Part shown: in pieces, positions 718 through 10,193 of the stretch
Layout of the letters: each line of letters starts with the position of its first letter
Position numbering within the stretch: the first letter of the stretch is position 1
Origin: Pyrodictiaceae archaeon
GTDB lineage: Archaea; Thermoproteota; Thermoprotei_A; Sulfolobales; Pyrodictiaceae
Length of the DNA: 10,193 nucleotides
Direction of reading: 5' to 3'
NCBI GenBank assembly: GCA_027046105.1
Contig: JALTZQ010000204.1
Coordinates: forward strand, 1-10,193
Notes under the pieces: model-generated
Seen by the model: the letters and a program-made list of their open reading frames with translations, nothing else
Database searches by the model: none
Told to the model about the DNA's origin: nothing
Made by a program: the position numbers and the translations under genes

Positions 718-1107
718 CTATGGTGTTGTTTTCTCTATCTTCTCTTTTACGTACTTTAGCGCTTCCTTGAGTGCTTCTTCAATGTTTCCAGGATAATGGT
801 ATGGCTTTACTATATGATCATGTTTTTCGTGAAAGTGATGTGGAAACGTTGATATTTGTCTATGGGTTTCATGAGGCGTATTATCCCATCGATATATGGT
901 ACCATCTATGTGACGCCTCTCCCAATGTATAGCATATCTGTTAGATAGTCTTCGAGAAATCCATACGTCAATAAAGCTTTCATCGATGAGGTATATTCTT
1001 AATTTACCATACACTATCTCTGCATTAACAACTATTTCTGGGTATAAGCTAATAGCAAGCTCTCTAAGCCTTTCAAGCATCTCATCTATACTATCGCTTT
1101 CGTTCAC
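718..1107 (-). CDS. TumE-like toxin (DUF6516 family)
   Basis: The product is a 129-residue basic, histidine-rich protein. The diagnostic block runs from about residue 58 to 96: an HW pair (61-62), RWDNTPH (73-79), and FPHHFH (88-93). This order of HW, R-DN-PH and PHH-H is the conserved core of the DUF6516/TumE toxin family, and the length is normal. Family members are growth-inhibiting partners in type II toxin-antitoxin modules; the cellular target is not established from this sequence. The GTG start at 1107 overlaps the TGA stop of the upstream gene in a GTGA junction, so translation is probably coupled to the presumed antitoxin. The pair sits in the AT-rich zone between tRNA-Pro and its decayed copy, a typical place for mobile toxin-antitoxin modules. 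All core motif residues are present, so it is probably intact. Confidence 0.8.
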   Translation of the reverse strand: MNESDSIDEMLERLRELAISLYPEIVVNAEIVYGKLRIYLIDESFIDVWISRRLSNRYAIHWERRHIDGTIYRWDNTPHETHRQISTFPHHFHEKHDHIVKPYHYPGNIEEALKEALKYVKEKIEKTTP

Positions 1108-1406
1108 TTTCTTGCGCCTCTCAATTCCTCTAAAAGCTTTTTCAACTTCTCCTCACGGTCAAGTAAGTAATCGAGGCGAGTAAGATCTTCAAAGACTTTT
1201 GTTTCCTCTAGTTCTCCTCGTCTAATCTTCTCGTCAAGCTCTTCAATACTCGATACACCATATCGAGCCATAATGAGTTTGGATTCTAACCTAACACGTC
1301 TAAGCTCAGACAAAATATACTGGCGTAATGCCTCTTTTTCTAATACATCCTCTTCAACACCAAGTATCTTGGATACCCTTTTATATAATAGACTAGTCAA
1401 TTCCAA
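1104..1406 (-). CDS. Putative antitoxin partner of the TumE-like protein (TumA-like role)
   Basis: The product is a 100-residue, strongly charged, mostly helical protein. The first 45 residues look like a helical bundle with a possible DNA-binding role. The second half (YGVSSIEELDEKIRRGELEE, then a coiled-coil-like tail of Asp/Glu/Lys/Leu) resembles the C-terminal half of small archaeal proteins encoded next to DUF6516 toxins. Its gene precedes the toxin gene and overlaps it by four bases, the usual antitoxin-toxin order. The start is TTG at 1406; no Shine-Dalgarno is seen, but a TATA-like CTTAAAG centred about 26 nt upstream suggests a leaderless mRNA beginning at or near this TTG. A second TTG at 1400 is also possible. 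The antitoxin role is inferred from position and shape, not from a recognised domain. Confidence 0.7.
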   Translation of the reverse strand: MELTSLLYKRVSKILGVEEDVLEKEALRQYILSELRRVRLESKLIMARYGVSSIEELDEKIRRGELEETKVFEDLTRLDYLLDREEKLKKLLEELRGARK

Positions 1407-2102: not shown

Positions 2103-3410
2103 TTATCCCCTTCTGGGTGCTAGCTTGGCTATGTAGAATCCTTGTGTTCGATGGATGTGTGGGAATAGTCTCCTTGAATGTTCTGCTATGTCTCCGTACT
2201 TGTTGTAGCCTTTTGTCCCCGGTATTCCTGGGTCGTCCATGAGGTCTGCGTGCTTGGCTAGTATTTCCTCTCCCTCCTCTGGCATTATGCTGCATGTTGC
2301 GTAGACTATTGTGGCGTGGTATGTTAGTGCCTTGGCTAGTAGTGCTGACTGTATTGGTGGGAATTGTTCTAGCCATTCCCTTGTTTCTAGGTGTAGTTTT
2401 ATGGCGGGATCTTTGCCTATTGCACCACTACTACTGCATGGTGCGTCTACTATCACCTTGTTTGGCTCTATGTTTAGGCTTAGTATGGTCGAGTCTGCGT
2501 TGACGAGTTCTACTCTCGACATATCAACGCCGTACAGCTTCATGAGTCTTTTTTGTCTCCGTATCCTTTCCCAGGACAAGTCTACAGCAACTATCCTCGC
2601 ACGGTTCTCCGTCAACTGCATTATTAGTGAGTCCTTTACCCCAGGAGCCGAGGCTAGGTCGAGGATTAGGTCACCAGGTTCTGGTCTAAGGGCTTCAACC
2701 ACTAGAGCTGAAGCTTTGTCTTGGAATACTATTTCTCCACGCCACATCTCCTCTAGGTGGTGTAGTGGCTCCTCGTACTCCACAACTTCTAGCATGTAGG
2801 GTAGATCTGGGTCTCTGCGTATAACGACACCTCGCTCACCAAGACTCTCAACGACACGGTCGATGTCGGTCTTTAAGGTGTTGACTCGTATCCACCAATA
2901 CTCCTCATTAAGCCCACTCAATAGCTTCTCGGCCTCATCATAGCCAATAAGGGATACGAGTTCCTCAACAAACCATCTAGGAAAACTGTACTGGACCGCG
3001 AGGCGGAGAATAGGGTCCTCTACATAATCCAGGATCTCACTTAGCTCTTCAACCCGCTTAGGCATAGTTCTCAGCAGCCGACGACGAAGCCTTGCAACAC
3101 CATCCTCCATCCAGCCAGGCACCAAGCCCGAGCTAGGCCCGAACAAGACAAGCCAGAGGCGAGCGAGCCTCTTGACACCACCTCTGCCACCATAAACCCT
3201 CTTCTCCACGAAACGGAGCGCATAGTAGTCCGAAACCATTCGGCGGCTAACACGAAACAATACTTTAACTGGAACAAGCTGGGCAGCGCGCGAGAACTCC
3301 CTTAACACAACCTGGAATGCACGATCATGACTAATCCTCCTCGACAAAACAACGTACAACACCCTAGCACCGAACTCAATAAGAGCCTCGACCTCTCTCT
3401 CAACCACCAC
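2103..3410 (-). CDS. RsmB/NOP2/Sun-family RNA cytosine-C5 methyltransferase
   Basis: The 435-residue protein transfers a methyl group from S-adenosylmethionine to C5 of cytosine in rRNA or tRNA. A helical N-terminal part (about 1-140) resembles the NusB-like extension of RsmB. A linker has PRWFVEEL (144-151) and WIRVNTLK (173-180). The Rossmann catalytic domain has motif I DLASAPGVKDS (251-261), motif II VDLS (276-279), motif IV DAPCSSSG with Cys325, and motif VI ATCS with the nucleophile Cys373. The canonical motif I (AAPGGKT) is altered, and the usual PEENE after motif VI is PEEGE, but both catalytic cysteines remain, so it is probably active. The start is GTG at 3410 with GGTGGTGTT just upstream; the start is not firmly fixed. 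It lies upstream of tRNA-Pro on the same strand. The RNA target cannot be read from the sequence. Confidence 0.9.
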   Translation of the reverse strand: MVVEREVEALIEFGARVLYVVLSRRISHDRAFQVVLREFSRAAQLVPVKVLFRVSRRMVSDYYALRFVEKRVYGGRGGVKRLARLWLVLFGPSSGLVPGWMEDGVARLRRRLLRTMPKRVEELSEILDYVEDPILRLAVQYSFPRWFVEELVSLIGYDEAEKLLSGLNEEYWWIRVNTLKTDIDRVVESLGERGVVIRRDPDLPYMLEVVEYEEPLHHLEEMWRGEIVFQDKASALVVEALRPEPGDLILDLASAPGVKDSLIMQLTENRARIVAVDLSWERIRRQKRLMKLYGVDMSRVELVNADSTILSLNIEPNKVIVDAPCSSSGAIGKDPAIKLHLETREWLEQFPPIQSALLAKALTYHATIVYATCSIMPEEGEEILAKHADLMDDPGIPGTKGYNKYGDIAEHSRRLFPHIHRTQGFYIAKLAPRRG

Positions 3411-3690: not shown

Positions 3691-4701
3691 CTACTTCTTC
3701 GCGTAGAGCCAGCAGGCCACGTATTGGCCTTTCCCAGCATTTACCATAGGTGGTTCTTTTTCGCTACAAATAGGCATTGCGAAGGGGCATCGTGGGTGTA
3801 GTCTACACCCTTTAGGCGGGTTAATAGGTGTTGGTATTTCACCTCGGAGCTCTATCCTCTTCTTCTTTTCACGAGCATAGCGTGGATCTGGTACTGGAAT
3901 ACTCGATATAAGGGCTTGAGTATAGGGGTGGAGAGGGTTAGCGAGTATCGTCTCAACGTGTCCTAATTCCACTATTTTACCCAAATACATTATAGCCATA
4001 TTGTCCCCTACATACCTCGCTGTAGCTAGGTCGTGTGTTATGTAGAGAAATGTCACATTCTTCTTTTCACGGAAGTAGAGTAGTAGATCAAGTATTGATG
4101 CACGAATACTTGCATCCAGCATTGAGACAGGCTCGTCTGCTACAACGAACTCGGGATCTACAACCATGGCCCTAGCTATTGCTACGCGTTGACGTTGTCC
4201 ACCACTTAGCTGGTGAGGGTAACGATAAGCGAATTCCTCTGGTGGTGTCAACTTAACTTCCTCGAGGATCTTGAATACTCTTTCCTCAACTTCTCGGCGA
4301 CTCCTCACAATCTTATTGACTACTAGGGGCTCCGCGATTATATCGATGATTCTCTGGCGTGGATTAAGACTTTCATAGGGATCCTGGAATATCATTTGTA
4401 TTTTGCGCCGTAAACCCATTTTCTTCCACTCACTTCTACGAAGCCTTGAAACCTCTACACCATCATAGATTATCCTTCCCCTTGTTGGCTTCTCAAGCCC
4501 AACTAGTATCTTGCCCGTCGTGGTCTTGCCGCTACCGCTTTCACCAGCTAGTACAAAGATTTCCCTCCTCCGGACACTGAAGCTTATACCATCAACGGCC
4601 TTGACGAAGATTCTTTCACCACGTATTATAGTTTCAAGAATACTCTTACGGACGGGAAACCACTTGTAAAGATCGTTCACTTCTACAAGCATATCCCTCA
4701 C
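3691..4701 (-). CDS. oppF: Oligopeptide-type ABC transporter ATPase (OppF/DppF)
   Basis: The 336-residue cytoplasmic ATPase powers import together with the neighbouring ATPase. Walker A GESGSGKTT is at 53-61, the Q-loop FQDP near 105, the signature LSGGQRQR near 165-172, Walker B VVADEP with D loop SMLD near 186-196, and the switch histidine in ITHD near 223. The C-terminal oligopeptide-type domain carries four cysteines (299, 305, 312, 330) in the pattern GCRLHPRC...C...C, known from related Opp/Dpp ATPases to hold an iron-sulfur cluster. The start is GTG at 4701: GAGGTGAT (4714-4707) lies 5 nt before it and overlaps the stop of the preceding gene, whereas the internal ATG at 4692 has no suitably spaced site. 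Six bases separate it from the upstream ATPase gene, so the two are coupled. The substrate is not determined by this subunit. Confidence 0.93.
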   Translation of the reverse strand: MRDMLVEVNDLYKWFPVRKSILETIIRGERIFVKAVDGISFSVRRREIFVLAGESGSGKTTTGKILVGLEKPTRGRIIYDGVEVSRLRRSEWKKMGLRRKIQMIFQDPYESLNPRQRIIDIIAEPLVVNKIVRSRREVEERVFKILEEVKLTPPEEFAYRYPHQLSGGQRQRVAIARAMVVDPEFVVADEPVSMLDASIRASILDLLLYFREKKNVTFLYITHDLATARYVGDNMAIMYLGKIVELGHVETILANPLHPYTQALISSIPVPDPRYAREKKKRIELRGEIPTPINPPKGCRLHPRCPFAMPICSEKEPPMVNAGKGQYVACWLYAKK

Positions 4702-4707
4702 AACACA

Positions 4708-5691
4708 TCACCTCTCCTCATACGTCTTCTCCTCAAGCCAACACGCGATGAATCTTCGTGGCCCTAGTTTGCGAACTAATGGCTCCTTTTCCCTACACAC
4801 TGGCGTCGCATAGCTGCATCTGGGGTGGAATCGGCAGCCAGGTGGAGGATTACGTAGATCGGGCGGCTCACCGGGTAATGCTACTAGCTTCTTCCTTGGA
4901 CCAATATGGCTTGGTACAGCACCTATCAATCCACGCGTATAGGGGTGTCGAGGCTCATAGAAGATGCTGTCCACGTCGCCGGCTTCAACAATTTTGCCAG
5001 CATACATTACATAGACACGGTCAGCAACTTCAGCAACTAATGGTAGATCATGCGTTATTAGGAGAATTGATATTCCTACTTCACGCTGTATATCCCGGAG
5101 CATATCCATTATCTTAGCTTGCGTCGTTACATCAAGACCCGTCGTGGGCTCATCAGCAATAACAAGGTCTGGTTCAAGCGCAAGAGCCATGGCAATGACG
5201 ACGCGTTGTTTTTGGCCTCCACTAAGCTCGTGTGGATAACTATCTATCCTCTCTGGATCTAGACCCACGAGACGGAAGAGCTCCTTAACCCTTTCGCGAC
5301 CCTCATCAGGCGTCGTGATTGCGCCATGGTAGAGCATTGCCTCTATTATTTGATCTCCTACCCTCATAACTGGGTTAAGTGAGTTCATCGCTCCCTGAAA
5401 TATCATGCTTACCTTTCTCCATCGTATTTTCCTAACCTCCTCCTCACTTAATGCTGTAATATCTATGCTGTCAAGGGTTATTCTTCCACCAACTATTCTG
5501 CCTGGGGGAGGAACGAGCCTCATTATGGCATAGGCTAACGTACTCTTACCACTACCACTTTCACCCACGAGAGCAACCATCTCGCCTTTGTCAACCTCTA
5601 GACTTACGCCATCAACTGCCTTCACTACCCCGGAAGCGGTAAAGTAGTATACCTTTAGATCCTCTACACTAAGTATCATGGAGGACTTCAA
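4708..5691 (-). CDS. oppD: Oligopeptide-type ABC transporter ATPase (OppD/DppD)
   Basis: The 327-residue protein is the second nucleotide-binding subunit. Walker A GESGSGKST is at 43-51, the Q-loop FQGAMNSLNP at 98-107, the signature LSGGQKQR at 156-163, Walker B VIADEPTTGLD at 177-187, and the switch histidine at 214. The C-terminal domain has the ALPGEPP segment (271-277) and four cysteines at 286, 292, 299 and 317, the Opp/Dpp iron-sulfur motif. All catalytic residues are present. The start is taken as TTG at 5691, with GAGGT (5705-5701) 9 nt upstream; ATG at 5679 is the alternative, giving a protein four residues shorter. The gene follows the permease C stop by seven bases. OppD and OppF should form a heterodimer under the BC permease. 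Confidence 0.93.
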   Translation of the reverse strand: MKSSMILSVEDLKVYYFTASGVVKAVDGVSLEVDKGEMVALVGESGSGKSTLAYAIMRLVPPPGRIVGGRITLDSIDITALSEEEVRKIRWRKVSMIFQGAMNSLNPVMRVGDQIIEAMLYHGAITTPDEGRERVKELFRLVGLDPERIDSYPHELSGGQKQRVVIAMALALEPDLVIADEPTTGLDVTTQAKIMDMLRDIQREVGISILLITHDLPLVAEVADRVYVMYAGKIVEAGDVDSIFYEPRHPYTRGLIGAVPSHIGPRKKLVALPGEPPDLRNPPPGCRFHPRCSYATPVCREKEPLVRKLGPRRFIACWLEEKTYEER

Positions 5692-5698
5692 GAGAAGC

Positions 5699-6580
5699 CT
5701 ACCTCTCGCGAAGCCTTGGATTAACGACCTCGTCTAGAGCATAACTTATGAAGACAAAGGCTAATCCTATGCCTATGAGTGCAAGACCTGGTGCAACAAT
5801 GTACATGGGGTTTGTACTTAATAGTGCCCCATAGCGGTCAGCAAAGTATAACATTGTACCCCAACTTATCTGAGTAGGATCACCGAGACCGAGGAAGCTG
5901 AGACCAGCCTCTAGTATTATGGCATTGGTTACAGTTAGCACCATTGTGGCAGTGAGTATAGGCAACACATTCGGTAGTATATGGTGTGTTATAATGAACC
6001 AGTCACTAGCACCTGCTACACGACTTGCTTGTATAAAGAGTCTTTCCTTTAGGGAAAGTGTCTCGCTTCTCACGAGACGGGCAGCGCTAGGCCAAGAGAT
6101 AATGGCTATTACGAGGATAACGTTCCATATACTTGGCCCTAGTATAACTGACAGTACAATGATGAATGGCAAGCCGGGTATTACTAGAAATAGATCAGTT
6201 ATCCTCATCAATATATCATCTATTATGCCGCCGAAATAGCCAGCTGTTATACCAACAGCTGCCCCTATAACCACGGAGAGTATTGAAGCTAGAACACCGA
6301 CAAATAGAGAGATCCTTGCACCGTAGATGACCTGGCTAAGTACATCACGCCCCATTTCATCAGTACCAAAGGGATGTTTGGGGCTTGGGGGCTCAAAGGG
6401 CTCACCAACACTCTCTTTAGGATCGTACGGTGCTATCCATGGTGCGGCTATCGCGATGAACACATAGAAGGCAAGCAGTATTAGCCCAATAATCCCTAAC
6501 TTTATCCTACGGTATACCTTCCAGCCTTCTACTAGCCTATCTATCCAGGTAGGTCTCTCACGCCCAATAATAACTGCCAT
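5699..6580 (-). CDS. dppC: ABC transporter permease of the DppC/OppC type
   Basis: This 293-residue integral membrane subunit has about six spans. A short cytoplasmic N-terminus leads to the first span (28-50). The conserved extracellular block HPFGTDEMGRD is at 69-79, followed by spans in the binding-protein-dependent transport domain. The EAA loop ASRVAGAS (185-192), which contacts the ATPases, is followed by HHILPNVLPI. The family motif LSFLGLGDP (227-235) comes before the last spans. Length and order match DppC/OppC. The start is ATG at 6580 with GAGGT (6595-6591) 10 nt upstream, only two bases after the permease B stop. It pairs with permease B to form the translocation path. The sequence does not show whether peptide or sugar is carried. 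Confidence 0.93.
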   Translation of the reverse strand: MAVIIGRERPTWIDRLVEGWKVYRRIKLGIIGLILLAFYVFIAIAAPWIAPYDPKESVGEPFEPPSPKHPFGTDEMGRDVLSQVIYGARISLFVGVLASILSVVIGAAVGITAGYFGGIIDDILMRITDLFLVIPGLPFIIVLSVILGPSIWNVILVIAIISWPSAARLVRSETLSLKERLFIQASRVAGASDWFIITHHILPNVLPILTATMVLTVTNAIILEAGLSFLGLGDPTQISWGTMLYFADRYGALLSTNPMYIVAPGLALIGIGLAFVFISYALDEVVNPRLRER

Positions 6581-6582
6581 GG

Positions 6583-7560
6583 CTAGTCGTACCTCACTCT
6601 TGGGTCGAGATAAGCATATAGGAGGTCGGTGAGGAAGTTGGCTAGTAGTACAACAAGCGTGATTATGAAGAATAAGCCTTGTAGAACTGGGTAATCGCGG
6701 TATATTGCTGCCTCGTACAATAGTCGGCCTATGCCATCCCAGTTGAATACGCTTTCTGTCAACACAGCACCACTAACAACTGTTGCCATATCGAGGCCTG
6801 CTAGAGTTATGATGGGGAGCATAGCGTTCCGTGCAGCATGCTTCCAGACAACTATCTTTTCCGGCAACCCTTTAGCCATTGCCGTGATAATATAGTCTTC
6901 CCTTATGACACTAACCATAGTGTTCCTCATTACCAGGAAATCTGCACCCAACCGTATCAATGTTATAGCTGTAGCAGGGAGCATCATATGCCATAGATAG
7001 TCGCCCATATACTCTACAATATTGCCATACTCTCTTGCTGGAGTTATTGTACCTCCTAGAGGGAACCAGCGATTATAAACTGCGAAGAGTAGTAGGAATA
7101 TGAGGCCAAGCCAGAATACTGGTATAGTGTAGAGTACCAATGCTGTAACGAGAGAAGCTAAGTCAATAGCCTTGCCACGCCTCCATGCAGCCCAAACACC
7201 AAGTATCATTCCAAGAGCCAATGCCATACCATGGCTAGCCGTTAGCAGCGCTAATGTGTTCAATAGTTTCCTACTAAAGATCAAATCAGCCACTGGCTTA
7301 TTATATATGAAACTAACACCTAGCTCACCGCGAAGCAGGTTAGACATATAGATAACGAACTGTTCATGTATAGGCTTGTTAAGCCCCCACAACTCACGAA
7401 GTCTTTCACGAAGCTCTGCACTAAAGGCAGCCTCCTCAATAAACATGGCTGTAGGGTCTCCAGGCATAAGTCTAAACACGTAGAACATTAAGGCCATGAA
7501 GAGGAATAGCGATACCACTAGCTCAACGCTACGCCTAGCCACATAGCCACGAAGACCCAA
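6583..7560 (-). CDS. dppB: ABC transporter permease of the DppB/OppB type
   Basis: This 325-residue membrane subunit begins with a span (11-30) followed by the family motif RLMPGDP (30-36) and the extracellular LRGELGVS (76-83). Further spans lie at about 100-125, 133-160, 190-210, 247-270 and 293-317. The EAA loop AMAKGLPEK (227-235) binds the ATPases, and the FNWDGIGRL motif (272-280) and a C-terminal LDPRVRY are typical of DppB. The start is TTG at 7560, with GGAGGGG (7578-7572) 11 nt upstream; no ATG is available near the conserved N-terminus. A 161-base gap separates it from the binding-protein gene, much wider than the gaps between the other operon members, which suggests RNA-level control between the two. 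Confidence 0.93.
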   Translation of the reverse strand: MGLRGYVARRSVELVVSLFLFMALMFYVFRLMPGDPTAMFIEEAAFSAELRERLRELWGLNKPIHEQFVIYMSNLLRGELGVSFIYNKPVADLIFSRKLLNTLALLTASHGMALALGMILGVWAAWRRGKAIDLASLVTALVLYTIPVFWLGLIFLLLFAVYNRWFPLGGTITPAREYGNIVEYMGDYLWHMMLPATAITLIRLGADFLVMRNTMVSVIREDYIITAMAKGLPEKIVVWKHAARNAMLPIITLAGLDMATVVSGAVLTESVFNWDGIGRLLYEAAIYRDYPVLQGLFFIITLVVLLANFLTDLLYAYLDPRVRYD

Positions 7561-7721: not shown

Positions 7722-9587
7722 CTATCTTCTCTTGAGCAAGACTATGGCTATTGCTAGCACTATAACTACTATTGCTAAGATTAGAGCCCCTGAGAGGAAT
7801 GGTGGTCCAGCAGCTTCTGCTGGCGCTGTAGGCTTTGGTGACGGTGTTGGTGTTGGGCTTGGTGGCGGCGTTGTTGGTGATGGTATTGGCGATGGCGTTG
7901 TTGGTGTTGCTGTAGGCGTTGGTGATGCTGGTGTTGGTGTTGGTTTCTTCGGTATGGCTTCAAGTACTCCATCGCCATCTATGTCCTTGTACTCGTATTT
8001 GTTGGATCGAGCAAGCATTTCCTTAGCCTTCTCTATATTAGGTTCAATGCTGCCAATCCATGGATACTTTTCTGGGATATGTGGGTTACTGAGTTCACCA
8101 AAGTATGGCGATATGTACCATGTACATGGTTCGCCAAGACCTTGTAATGGGCCCTCGACAACTTCTTTCTTCGGTAGTAGATATGCTATTGCTCTCCTTA
8201 GCCATACGTCGTCGAGTGGTGGTCTTCGCAGGTTGAAGCCAAGATAGTAGAAGGTTATACCACGTTCTAGGTTAAGGTGGAGATTAGGATTCTGCTTGAC
8301 TCTTGGCACAGCACTCGGTGGTATATAGTAAACGTAGAAGTGCGCTTCACCAGCCTCCATGGCTAGGAGGGCTGTATTGAAGTTCTTTATTATCCTGAAG
8401 ACTAGGCGATCCATTTTTGGCATGTTCTTTCGCCAATAGTTTTCGAACTTCACTAACTCGATGTACTCGCCAGTCACTCTCTTACTCCACTTATATGGCC
8501 CGCTCCCTATTAGTGGTGGGTTAGTTGTGTTCCATGGAATGTTCTCCCATACATGCTTAGGTAGGATAGGCATATCAGCTAAGTCGTAGAGGAACCAAGC
8601 ATAGGGCTCCTTGAGGTATACTCTGACAGTGTACTTATCTATAACCTCAGCCTTCTCTACATATTTAGCTATATTGGCTAGTCCAGGCACTTGGTTCTTC
8701 ACTATATAGTTAAAGGTGAATGCCACATCTTCTGCAGTTAAGGGTTTACCGTCATGCCATGTAGCGTTTTGTACTAGGTAGAAGGTCCATACTTTTCCAT
8801 CTTCACTCCACTCATACTTGTAGGCTACCCAGGGTTTTGGCGAATAATTATCGTCCAAGTAGACTAGTGTATCGTAGAGAGCATCCCACACCATGTCTTC
8901 ATAGATTGTTTTCTCGAGTAAGACGTTTTCGGTCTTAAGATCGTCTGCAAGTATTACTATGAAGGTACCACCTTCTTGTCCCTCGAAATAGGCTGTACGC
9001 CAAGTCATTGGGCTTGCATAGCCCCAGTATTCCTTATGCAAGCCCTTAAGGTTCTTGACCCATACTTGTGTTAAGTACCTCGTATATATACCGACCCACG
9101 GCACTTGGTCAGCAAGTATTTCCTGGATCTTCCATAGTATCTCCTTCTGCTTCTCTGGATCCACCGTACTATCAAGCATGTGTGCAAGCTTGTCAAGAGT
9201 CTCATTCCTTATACCTTCAGCATTGTTTCCTCCAGGTCTATCCTCGCTAATCTTCACCATAGATGAGATATACATTGGCATGTTTCTTGCCGTCCATCCG
9301 AGAATGTACATGTCGAAATCATGTTCATCCTGAACTTTAGCTATCTCATAGTTCAGGTCTACTGGTCTAACGTGTATCTTTATGCCAACCTCTGCAGCAT
9401 ATTTGGCCAAGAGTTCTGCCGCACGAATTCTTACAGGATCATACTCTGGTACCAGAACCTCAAACTCTAGCTTGTAGACCTTCTCCTCTTGCGCCATGGC
9501 TGGTGAATGTATATAGAGCGGGGCAAACATCGCTACAAGAAATAACATTATCGTTAATGGGCCTAGAGCCCGGTGCAACGATCCCAC
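7722..9587 (-). CDS. Membrane-anchored SBP_bac_5-type substrate-binding protein, apparently circularly permuted
   Basis: The gene encodes the extracellular receptor of the transporter, 621 residues from GTG at 9587. A signal peptide ends at SPAMA before QEE (about residue 33). Residues 36-202 (LVPEYDPVRIRAAELL, HDFDMYILGW, PGGNN, a helix with DPEKQKEILWKIQEILAD) are what normally forms the C-terminal third of SBP_bac_5 proteins. Residues 206-547 are what normally comes first: GGTFIVILADD, WSEDGKVWTF, WHDGKPLTAEDVAFTF, GSGPYKW, YYLGFNLRRPPL, and the calcium-like DIDGDG before the old junction. A Pro/Thr/Ser stalk (about 548-596) and a membrane span ending KRR anchor it. An upstream ATG (9692) extends the frame, but those residues are not signal-like and a TATA box lies inside. 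Peptide is the family default; several archaeal relatives bind oligosaccharides. Confidence 0.88.
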   Translation of the reverse strand: MGSLHRALGPLTIMLFLVAMFAPLYIHSPAMAQEEKVYKLEFEVLVPEYDPVRIRAAELLAKYAAEVGIKIHVRPVDLNYEIAKVQDEHDFDMYILGWTARNMPMYISSMVKISEDRPGGNNAEGIRNETLDKLAHMLDSTVDPEKQKEILWKIQEILADQVPWVGIYTRYLTQVWVKNLKGLHKEYWGYASPMTWRTAYFEGQEGGTFIVILADDLKTENVLLEKTIYEDMVWDALYDTLVYLDDNYSPKPWVAYKYEWSEDGKVWTFYLVQNATWHDGKPLTAEDVAFTFNYIVKNQVPGLANIAKYVEKAEVIDKYTVRVYLKEPYAWFLYDLADMPILPKHVWENIPWNTTNPPLIGSGPYKWSKRVTGEYIELVKFENYWRKNMPKMDRLVFRIIKNFNTALLAMEAGEAHFYVYYIPPSAVPRVKQNPNLHLNLERGITFYYLGFNLRRPPLDDVWLRRAIAYLLPKKEVVEGPLQGLGEPCTWYISPYFGELSNPHIPEKYPWIGSIEPNIEKAKEMLARSNKYEYKDIDGDGVLEAIPKKPTPTPASPTPTATPTTPSPIPSPTTPPPSPTPTPSPKPTAPAEAAGPPFLSGALILAIVVIVLAIAIVLLKRR

Positions 9588-9630
9588 CAGATACCTTGCA
9601 CCGACTGGGTTAAAAGTGGGCAAACGTGGC

Positions 9631-9640
9631 TTAAAAAGCT
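9631..9640 (-). promoter_or_regulatory. TATA-like box for the transporter operon
   Basis: The - strand reads AGCTTTTTAA followed by GCC. About 26 nt downstream of its centre is position 9609, so transcription would begin about 20 nt before the GTG at 9587, with a GGTG in the short leader. This position lies within the longest open frame and so argues against the ATG at 9692 as the true start. Confidence 0.5.
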
Positions 9641-9713
9641 GACTCGCATTATTAGGAGAAGGATTACAATGAAAAAATTGCCATAACAACATGAATAACG
9701 TTGCCCTAAGAGG

Positions 9714-10193
9714 CTAAAGTGTTTCAGCTCCTATTTTGGCTTCCTTTATACGCTTCTCTGGTACCCCATAGTATCTCCCGTTAAGTGCGTTATCAAGATC
9801 CTCAATGAGGTCTTCGGGATCCTCTAAGCCCACTGAGAGTCTTATGAGCCCATCTGTTATTCCTAGCTTCTTTCTCGTCCCTGGATCTATGTAGCGTGCT
9901 GCTGAGATCGAGGGTATGGTGGCGAGGGTCTCTGTGGCTCCAAGGCTAGGTGTAGGCCTTATTACTTTAAACCTAGACACTATCTTACGTACCTCTTCTA
10001 AGCCTCCATGGATAGTGAATGAGACTACTGCACCATATAGTCGTTTCCGGAATAGCCTTGAAGCCACCTCATGATAAGGGCTACTGGGTAAGCCTGGATA
10101 GTATACCTGCTCGACTCTAGGATGCTCAGATAGGAATTCTGCTATAGCTTGTGCAGTTCTACAAGCTCGTTCAAAGCGTACAACTAGTGTTTT
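9714..10193 (-). CDS. Cystathionine gamma-synthase/gamma-lyase family PLP enzyme, C-terminal part (partial)
   Basis: The frame is open from the right edge of the window to TAG at 9714, giving the last 159 residues. The text KTLVVRFER, then HPRVEQVYYPGLPSSPYHE, then YGAVVSFTI, then SLGATETLATIPS and GITDGLIRLSVGLEDPEDLI follows the Cys/Met metabolism PLP-dependent family in order. Members carry out cystathionine synthesis or cleavage, or related sulfur amino-acid reactions, in the cytoplasm as tetramers. The SLG-ES-type segment reads SLGATET here. The PLP lysine and the residues that separate synthase from lyase lie outside the window, so the exact reaction is open. A tail of about 20 residues (RYYGVPEKRIKEAKIGAETL) extends past the usual end. 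The gene lies upstream of the transporter operon on the same strand, but that operon has its own promoter-like box. Confidence 0.9.
   Translation of the reverse strand, partial: KTLVVRFERACRTAQAIAEFLSEHPRVEQVYYPGLPSSPYHEVASRLFRKRLYGAVVSFTIHGGLEEVRKIVSRFKVIRPTPSLGATETLATIPSISAARYIDPGTRKKLGITDGLIRLSVGLEDPEDLIEDLDNALNGRYYGVPEKRIKEAKIGAETL

What the first reader, a model, noticed from the sequence alone, without database searches (positions are those of the whole stretch)
7722..9587. Naturally circularly permuted Opp/Dpp substrate-binding protein
The order of segments is reversed relative to ordinary SBP_bac_5 proteins. The block with LVPEYDPVRIRAAE, HDFDMYILGW and PGGNN (nt 9482-8982), normally the C-terminal third, comes directly after the signal peptide. 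The block starting GGTFIVILADD and running to DIDGDGVLE (nt 8972-7947), normally the start of the mature protein, follows. The two pieces together make one domain of normal length, and the break is exactly where an ordinary protein would join DGDGVLE to LEFEVLVP. This fits a tandem duplication followed by loss of the outer halves. The original terminus is now an internal joint, and the stalk and anchor leave from a different point of the fold, which may change how the receptor faces the permease. I do not know of a described natural case in this family.
Basis: partly seen in the sequence, partly recalled or inferred. Interest (0 to 1): 0.85.

Follow-up and report, generated by a model that had tools for sequence, protein, structure and literature searches.

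The report
Naturally permuted archaeal nutrient-binding protein
The surface protein that captures nutrients for an archaeal importer has its two halves in swapped order, and related proteins suggest that nature has made such swaps several times in this large family.

Summary
Confirmed. The gene at 7722-9578 (-) encodes an SBP_bac_5 (family 5) solute-binding protein whose C-terminal third precedes the rest of the domain; each block occurs once. Order was checked against PDB sequences and with HMMs built only from ordinary proteins. A 66% identical Desulfurococcales relative has the same order and the same B-C-D-F operon. AlphaFold2 is confident (pLDDT 90.3, pTM 0.82).

It is not a single case. 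Of 324 proteins fetched, 64 rows (63 distinct, the window's included) have this order (CP1) and 51 a second permutation at another loop (CP2). CP1 also occurs in named bacteria and haloarchaea. On a 120-row tree CP1 needs 7 changes, 6 forced by well-supported branches; CP2 is one clade. Of five finished AU tests of one-clade groupings, four reject (one marginally), one does not.

Natural permutants are known in other binding-protein families. For family 5 I found none in nine paper searches, and no solved chain in this order among the 60 of 118 shown. Substrate and effect of the moved tether are unknown.

The parts
7722..9578 (-). gene of the circularly permuted SBP_bac_5 solute-binding protein (618 aa with the TTG start of catalogue entry P0002; the ORF is open up to an ATG at 9692)
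   Evidence: Pfam SBP_bac_5 281.9 bits, 2 stretches
9492..9578 (-). signal peptide, about 29 aa, ending AMA|QEE (read by eye, no predictor run)
   Evidence: sequence; helix 5-17 in the model; QEE at nt 9491
8982..9473 (-). C block: the C-terminal third of an ordinary SBP_bac_5 domain, here N-terminal
   Evidence: C-block HMM 125 bits at residues 76-204 of P0001; phmmer 8efz 335-482; positions
8973..8981 (-). joint GQE between the old C-terminus (..TWRTAYFE) and the old N-terminus (GGTFIVI..); limits judged by eye
   Evidence: comparison with ordinary P0018, which ends ..WTWLKVHRV and begins ..EYGGVLRVAF; positions
7956..8972 (-). N block: the N-terminal two thirds of an ordinary SBP_bac_5 domain, ending in the DGDGVLEA loop
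7794..7955 (-). Pro/Thr-rich stalk starting at the cut loop
   Evidence: sequence; pLDDT under 50 at 560-595 of the model
7728..7793 (-). C-terminal membrane helix (anchor)
   Evidence: helix 596-617 of the model; hydropathy rule
6583..7560 (-). DppB-type permease
   Evidence: Pfam BPD_transp_1 and BPD_transp_1_N
5699..6580 (-). DppC-type permease
   Evidence: Pfam BPD_transp_1 and OppC_N
4708..5691 (-). DppD-type ATPase
   Evidence: Pfam ABC_tran and oligo_HPY
3691..4701 (-). DppF-type ATPase
   Evidence: Pfam ABC_tran and oligo_HPY

Best explanation
The gene encodes a working, membrane-tethered solute-binding protein of the adjacent Dpp/Opp-type importer, whose SBP_bac_5 domain is a natural circular permutant. 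The old termini, which lie together in this fold (recalled), are joined by about three residues. New termini were opened in the loop between the helix that ends the N block and the first strand of the C block (about E. coli DppA residues 369-378). The protein is expected to fold into the usual two-lobed clamshell, bind its solute between the lobes and hand it to the B/C permease. The tether leaves from the cut loop and not from the old C-terminus. It is one member of a large class: the same loop was opened in several lineages, apparently more than once, and a second loop (about DppA 233-240, judged by eye) was opened in a further clade. Shown here: order, single copy, conservation, operon, spread, tree. 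Inferred: folding and function, recurrence as gains and not reversals, and any effect of the tether position. The substrate is not known.
For: Reversed order against solved SBPs and by HMMs built from ordinary proteins. Relatives at 83 to 37% identity (P0003-P0017) have the same order, one of the class on a 395 kb contig (P0122). Locus L001, a Desulfurococcales MAG, carries a 66% identical permuted SBP followed by B, C, D, F (Pfam). Model pLDDT 90.3, pTM 0.82, both blocks mostly above 90. 64 CP1 and 51 CP2 rows of 324. Proteins without a C-terminal helix end at or near the cut, for example WDSDGRLVK (CP1) and NPNYWRLNPTE (CP2). Named organisms with one-piece matches over 93-100% of CP1 protein P0027; annotated importer operons for the two that I opened.
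Against: No experiment. The structural aligners follow chain order, so only the N block (model 199-545) was superposed on solved structures; docking of the C block rests on model confidence and sequence homology. The CP2 model failed (pLDDT 54.5). Ordinary P0206 lies inside one CP1 group and the ordinary P0024 group inside or beside the query's, so some changes could be reversals. One AU test does not reject (p 0.498) and one is marginal (p 0.0415). No tandem intermediate was found.
Confidence: 0.87

Rival explanations
1. Assembly chimera or gene-model artefact: two neighbouring ordinary SBP genes were collapsed or misjoined in a metagenome assembly so that the halves appear swapped.
For: The window has no whole genome held, and many relatives come from metagenomes.
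Against: The same order occurs in many separate assemblies, from 83 down to about 25% identity, and in plasmid records of organisms such as Halalkalicoccus jeotgali B3, Ketogulonicigenium vulgare and Neorhizobium galegae. Signal peptides and natural ends sit at the cut. A chimera would not recur.
Confidence: 0.01
2. The permuted protein is real but no longer an importer receptor: it folds differently, for example as a domain-swapped dimer, or serves as a surface sensor or decoy.
For: The joint is short, and the dipeptide-binding Arg383 of DppA aligns with Pro in the query.
Against: The gene heads a complete B-C-D-F operon in the window and in L001. Arg is not among the eight commonest residues at that column in the 208 ordinary proteins either, so its absence says nothing special. 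The confident model is a monomer prediction. Permuted TpMglB-2 still binds glucose and changes conformation (PMC4990184, passages).
Confidence: 0.1
3. One ancient permutation gave all CP1 proteins, and the ordinary proteins now lying among them are placed there by tree error.
For: The cut lies in one loop in the twelve CP1 proteins whose junctions I printed. Holding the L007 group and P0131 together is not rejected (p-AU 0.498). The 14-row query group is only marginally split (p-AU 0.0415).
Against: All 34 CP1 rows as one clade: log-likelihood 198.85 worse, p-AU 2.2e-63. 18 archaeal C-anchored CP1 rows as one clade: p-AU 0.0154. P0180 held with the bacterial clade: p-AU 0.0066; P0180 also keeps loop residues (DPQGKPIP) on the other side of the cut from the query. 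The groups were partly chosen after seeing trees.
Confidence: 0.1

Closest known systems
SBP_bac_5 / family-5, cluster C solute-binding proteins (DppA, OppA, NikA, AppA)
   Different: Order of the two blocks is reversed; tether at the cut loop; far below the NCBIfam cut-offs for DppA, NikA, Opp4A and GsiB.
TpMglB-2 (Tp0684), proposed 'Type Ic / Cluster Bc' permuted glucose-binding lipoprotein (PMC4990184)
   Same: Natural circular permutant of an ABC-importer binding protein in a tethered receptor; its authors suggest that anchoring may explain the permutation (passages read).
   Different: Type I / cluster B sugar-binding family and another cut; its authors report only 13% identity for the moved part, whereas here both blocks are recognised by sequence.
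Glycine betaine- and molybdate-binding proteins and CysB, permutation family found by CPSARST (PMC2395249)
   Same: Natural circular permutation among periplasmic binding protein folds (passages read).
   Different: Not family 5; the relation was seen by structure at under 24% sequence identity.

Membership tests
SBP_bac_5 (PF00496) | significant match to the family profile | tested here: met
   281.9 bits against a cutoff of 32.4, two stretches
SBP_bac_5 (PF00496) | N block and C block each present once | tested here: met
   one hit per block HMM
SBP_bac_5 (PF00496) | ordinary chain order, N block before C block | tested here: not met
   C 76-204 before N 268-576; reversed against 8efz. So it is filed as a permuted variant, not an ordinary member
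SBP_bac_5 (PF00496) | gene beside Dpp/Opp permease and ATPase genes | tested here: met
   B, C, D, F downstream; same in L001
SBP_bac_5 (PF00496) | two-lobed clamshell fold including the C block | tested here: inconclusive
   confident model, but the chain-order aligners superposed only about 199-545
DppA dipeptide receptor (NF043070) | score above the curated cut-off | tested here: not met
   88.6 bits against 1005
DppA dipeptide receptor | Arg383, which binds the dipeptide (PMC12136057, passages) | tested here: not met
   aligns with Pro in the query by way of P0027; not among the commonest residues in ordinary relatives either
NikA nickel receptor (TIGR02294) | score above the curated cut-off | tested here: not met
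   135.7 bits against 393
TpMglB-2-like Type Ic / Cluster Bc | Type I / cluster B sugar-binding fold with circular permutation | tested here: not met
   sequence family is PF00496; peptide-binding SBPs are described as cluster C in PMC12136057; only the permutation is shared
functional importer receptor | binds a solute and supports uptake | not testable with these tools
   needs biochemistry

The most novel reading that the evidence does not exclude
The SBP_bac_5 fold has been circularly permuted in nature several independent times at one loop, and in a further clade at a second loop, giving two widespread classes of permuted importer receptors in archaea and bacteria that databases annotate as ordinary. 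The permutation moves the membrane tether from the lobe that holds the old termini to the cut loop, which may change how the receptor is presented to its permease.
Probability: 0.6. Interest if true: 0.75.

Novelty: new variant of a known kind. Interest (0 to 1): 0.64.

Why it matters
Many papers on permuted binding proteins concern engineered sensors (listings). Here nature offers a large set of ordinary and permuted receptors of one family, with their operons, including three permuted lineages beside at least six ordinary receptors in a single archaeal genome. That makes testable whether chain order matters for folding, closure and permease docking, and whether tether position drives it. It also warns that chain-order structure aligners superpose only one block of such proteins.

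Tried and rejected
Order counts are not population frequencies: the proteins were listed because they resemble the query or permuted profiles, and only part of each list was seen (120 of 401, 120 of 1955 and 120 of 848 hits).

Fused tandem intermediate (N-C-N-C): sought with an alignment whose first sequence has 777 aa, which allows candidates to about 1360 aa; the longest protein fetched has 777 aa and none has two C blocks. Not found; not excluded. A 1070-aa frame in G001 (L046) had only a weak N-block fragment.

VIA-align and Foldseek align in chain order, so the C block was not superposed. PDB search with the permuted profile: 118 chains matched, 60 shown, each with its best stretch in the N block; the other 58 were not seen.

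Substrate from binding residues: the Arg383 column was readable; the count for the Asp436 column is invalid (the motif used to find it is not in the match columns) and was dropped.

Tests not finished: query group plus bacterial clade as one clade was not repeated, so it remains untested; the bacterial clade plus P0180 test, unfinished, was finished on the 94-row tree.

Own genome search: none held for the window. Literature. Lists were cut (30 of 381; 20 of 38). I read listings only, except passages of PMC4990184, PMC2395249, PMC2861598 (nothing on permutation) and PMC12136057.

Full report
What was claimed.

Check of the observation. The frame 7722-9692 (-) is open throughout; the catalogue's version starts at a TTG and has 618 aa (P0002). 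Against the PDB, residues 261-545 match 27-308 of 8efz while residues 73-225 match 335-482 of the same chain. To be independent of the query's order I built two block HMMs from ordinary proteins only (79 C blocks, 78 N blocks) and searched the proteins fetched by then: the query has one C hit (76-204, 125 bits) and one N hit (268-576, 323 bits), C first. Shuffled versions of all 324 proteins fetched in the end gave no hit with either HMM. The cut lies in the loop that in ordinary proteins reads, for example, DTNGDGVREDENGKPIELEI (P0018); the query ends its domain in DIDGDGVLEA and starts it at KLEFEVL, and the old ends are joined by about three residues (TWRTAYFE-GQE-GGTF). In E. coli DppA numbering, read off the match of permuted relative P0027, the cut falls between 368 and 379, a few residues before Arg383.

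It is not an artefact. Relatives at 83% identity and below show the same order. L001, from a Desulfurococcales MAG, holds a 66% identical permuted gene followed by permeases B and C and ATPases D and F, as in the window; an ordinary SBP gene stands divergently beside it. The whole genome behind L001 (G001) holds three permuted receptors, which fall in three different CP1 groups of the tree (the one on contig 259 is represented there by its close relative P0009), and at least six ordinary ones. The two permuted ones on other contigs lie directly upstream of permease genes too. In a survey of 147 genomes of that order, the listed matches that span the whole permuted profile fell at 14 places in 9 genomes (the list was cut, so this is a lower bound); 11 of these 14 were held as loci and all 11 have the permuted order.

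A class, and a second cut. Over all 324 proteins (the window's translation plus those listed in three searches): 64 rows have the query's order (CP1; P0001 and P0002 are the same protein), 208 the ordinary order, and 51 a second permuted order (CP2) in which the last part of the N block (HMM positions about 161-303) comes first, then the C block, then N positions about 1-161; P0033 has no C-block hit. The script's rule found 47 CP2; four more (P0256, P0264, P0274, P0286) were moved from 'other' after I read their coordinates. P0176, P0234, P0312 and perhaps P0031 look like fragments. Where a source gives a name, CP2 proteins come from archaea called Methanomethylicia, Verstraetearchaeota or Bathyarchaeota and from bacteria called Clostridia, Limnochordia, Firmicutes or Bacillota. 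Their cut lies after '..NPNYWRLNP' and before '..DEIIMPIV', about DppA 233-240 when compared by eye with the alignment. By a simple hydropathy rule 34 of 63 CP1, 31 of 51 CP2 and 67 of 208 ordinary proteins have a C-terminal membrane helix; of the 29 CP1 and 20 CP2 without one, all but fragment P0312 end at or within some tens of residues of the cut (ends read by eye). Such natural ends argue that these are true termini.

Spread in named organisms. tblastn of CP1 protein P0027 against plasmids: 3369 records match; in 119 one place covers at least 80% of the query. Of the 40 rows listed, 32 are one-piece matches over 93-100% of the query, among them Nitratireductor (66% identity), Halalkalicoccus jeotgali (38%), Ketogulonicigenium, Roseomonas, Neorhizobium galegae and Haladaptatus; 8 join two or three pieces and are less certain. 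Most annotated rows read 'ABC transporter substrate-binding protein'. Two were opened: both lie at the head of permease and ATPase genes; in H. jeotgali a creatininase-family and an M20/M25/M40 hydrolase gene follow.

One origin or several. I reordered the block alignments to a common order and built trees. FastTree, 213 rows: CP1 5 changes, 4 forced by starred branches. IQ-TREE, 85, 94 and 120 rows: 5, 6 and 7 changes, of which starred branches force 4, 4 and 6. CP2 is one clade in all four (97/93 in the largest). Five AU tests finished: all 34 CP1 rows as one clade rejected (p 2.2e-63); 18 archaeal C-anchored CP1 rows rejected (p 0.0154); P0180 with the bacterial clade rejected (p 0.0066); the 14-row query group marginal (p 0.0415); the L007 group with P0131 not rejected (p 0.498). 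The groups were partly chosen after seeing trees, and the query group plus the bacterial clade was not tested to the end. Read conservatively this needs at least three changes of order at this loop; some may be reversals. P0180, nested among ordinary proteins (100/98), keeps the loop residues DPQGKPIP at its new N-terminus, whereas the query keeps DGDGVLEA at its C-terminus, which fits separate openings of one loop.

Substrate. Not determined. NCBIfam cut-offs for named receptors are not reached, and DppA's Arg383 is Pro here, but Arg is not among the eight commonest residues at that column in ordinary relatives either.

Novelty. Natural permutation of binding proteins is known; for family 5 none was found in nine paper searches of an open-licence library (two lists cut), nor a solved chain in this order among the 60 of 118 shown. 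Most subscription papers were not searchable. I therefore call it a new variant of a known kind.

Noticed in passing
window 718-1406 (-): Two small genes in line: 1104-1406 (no Pfam match) and 718-1107 with a TumE domain (Pfam 'Toxin TumE', 58.2 bits); may be a toxin-antitoxin pair.
   Followed up: partly
window 2103-3410 (-): RsmB/F-type RNA methyltransferase with a ferredoxin-like domain, downstream of the importer operon.
   Followed up: partly
window 9714-10193 (-): C-terminal part of a Cys/Met metabolism PLP enzyme directly upstream of the permuted receptor.
   Followed up: partly
L001 12-1931 (-) and 2094-3995 (+): An ordinary SBP gene stands divergently beside the permuted one, so both orders share one intergenic region.
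   Followed up: partly
P0012-P0014, P0016, P0017, P0122-P0124: These eight permuted relatives carry Pfam PF01835 (five also PF13620), by eye between the cut and the membrane helix, in place of the low-complexity stalk.
   Followed up: no
L052 12928-15028: In Halalkalicoccus jeotgali B3 the permuted receptor's operon is followed by a creatininase-family and an M20/M25/M40 hydrolase gene, a hint at an amide or peptide-like substrate.
   Followed up: no
P0256, P0264, P0274, P0281, P0286: These CP2 proteins have a stalk that reads like a coiled coil (by eye) between the cut and the membrane helix.
   Followed up: no
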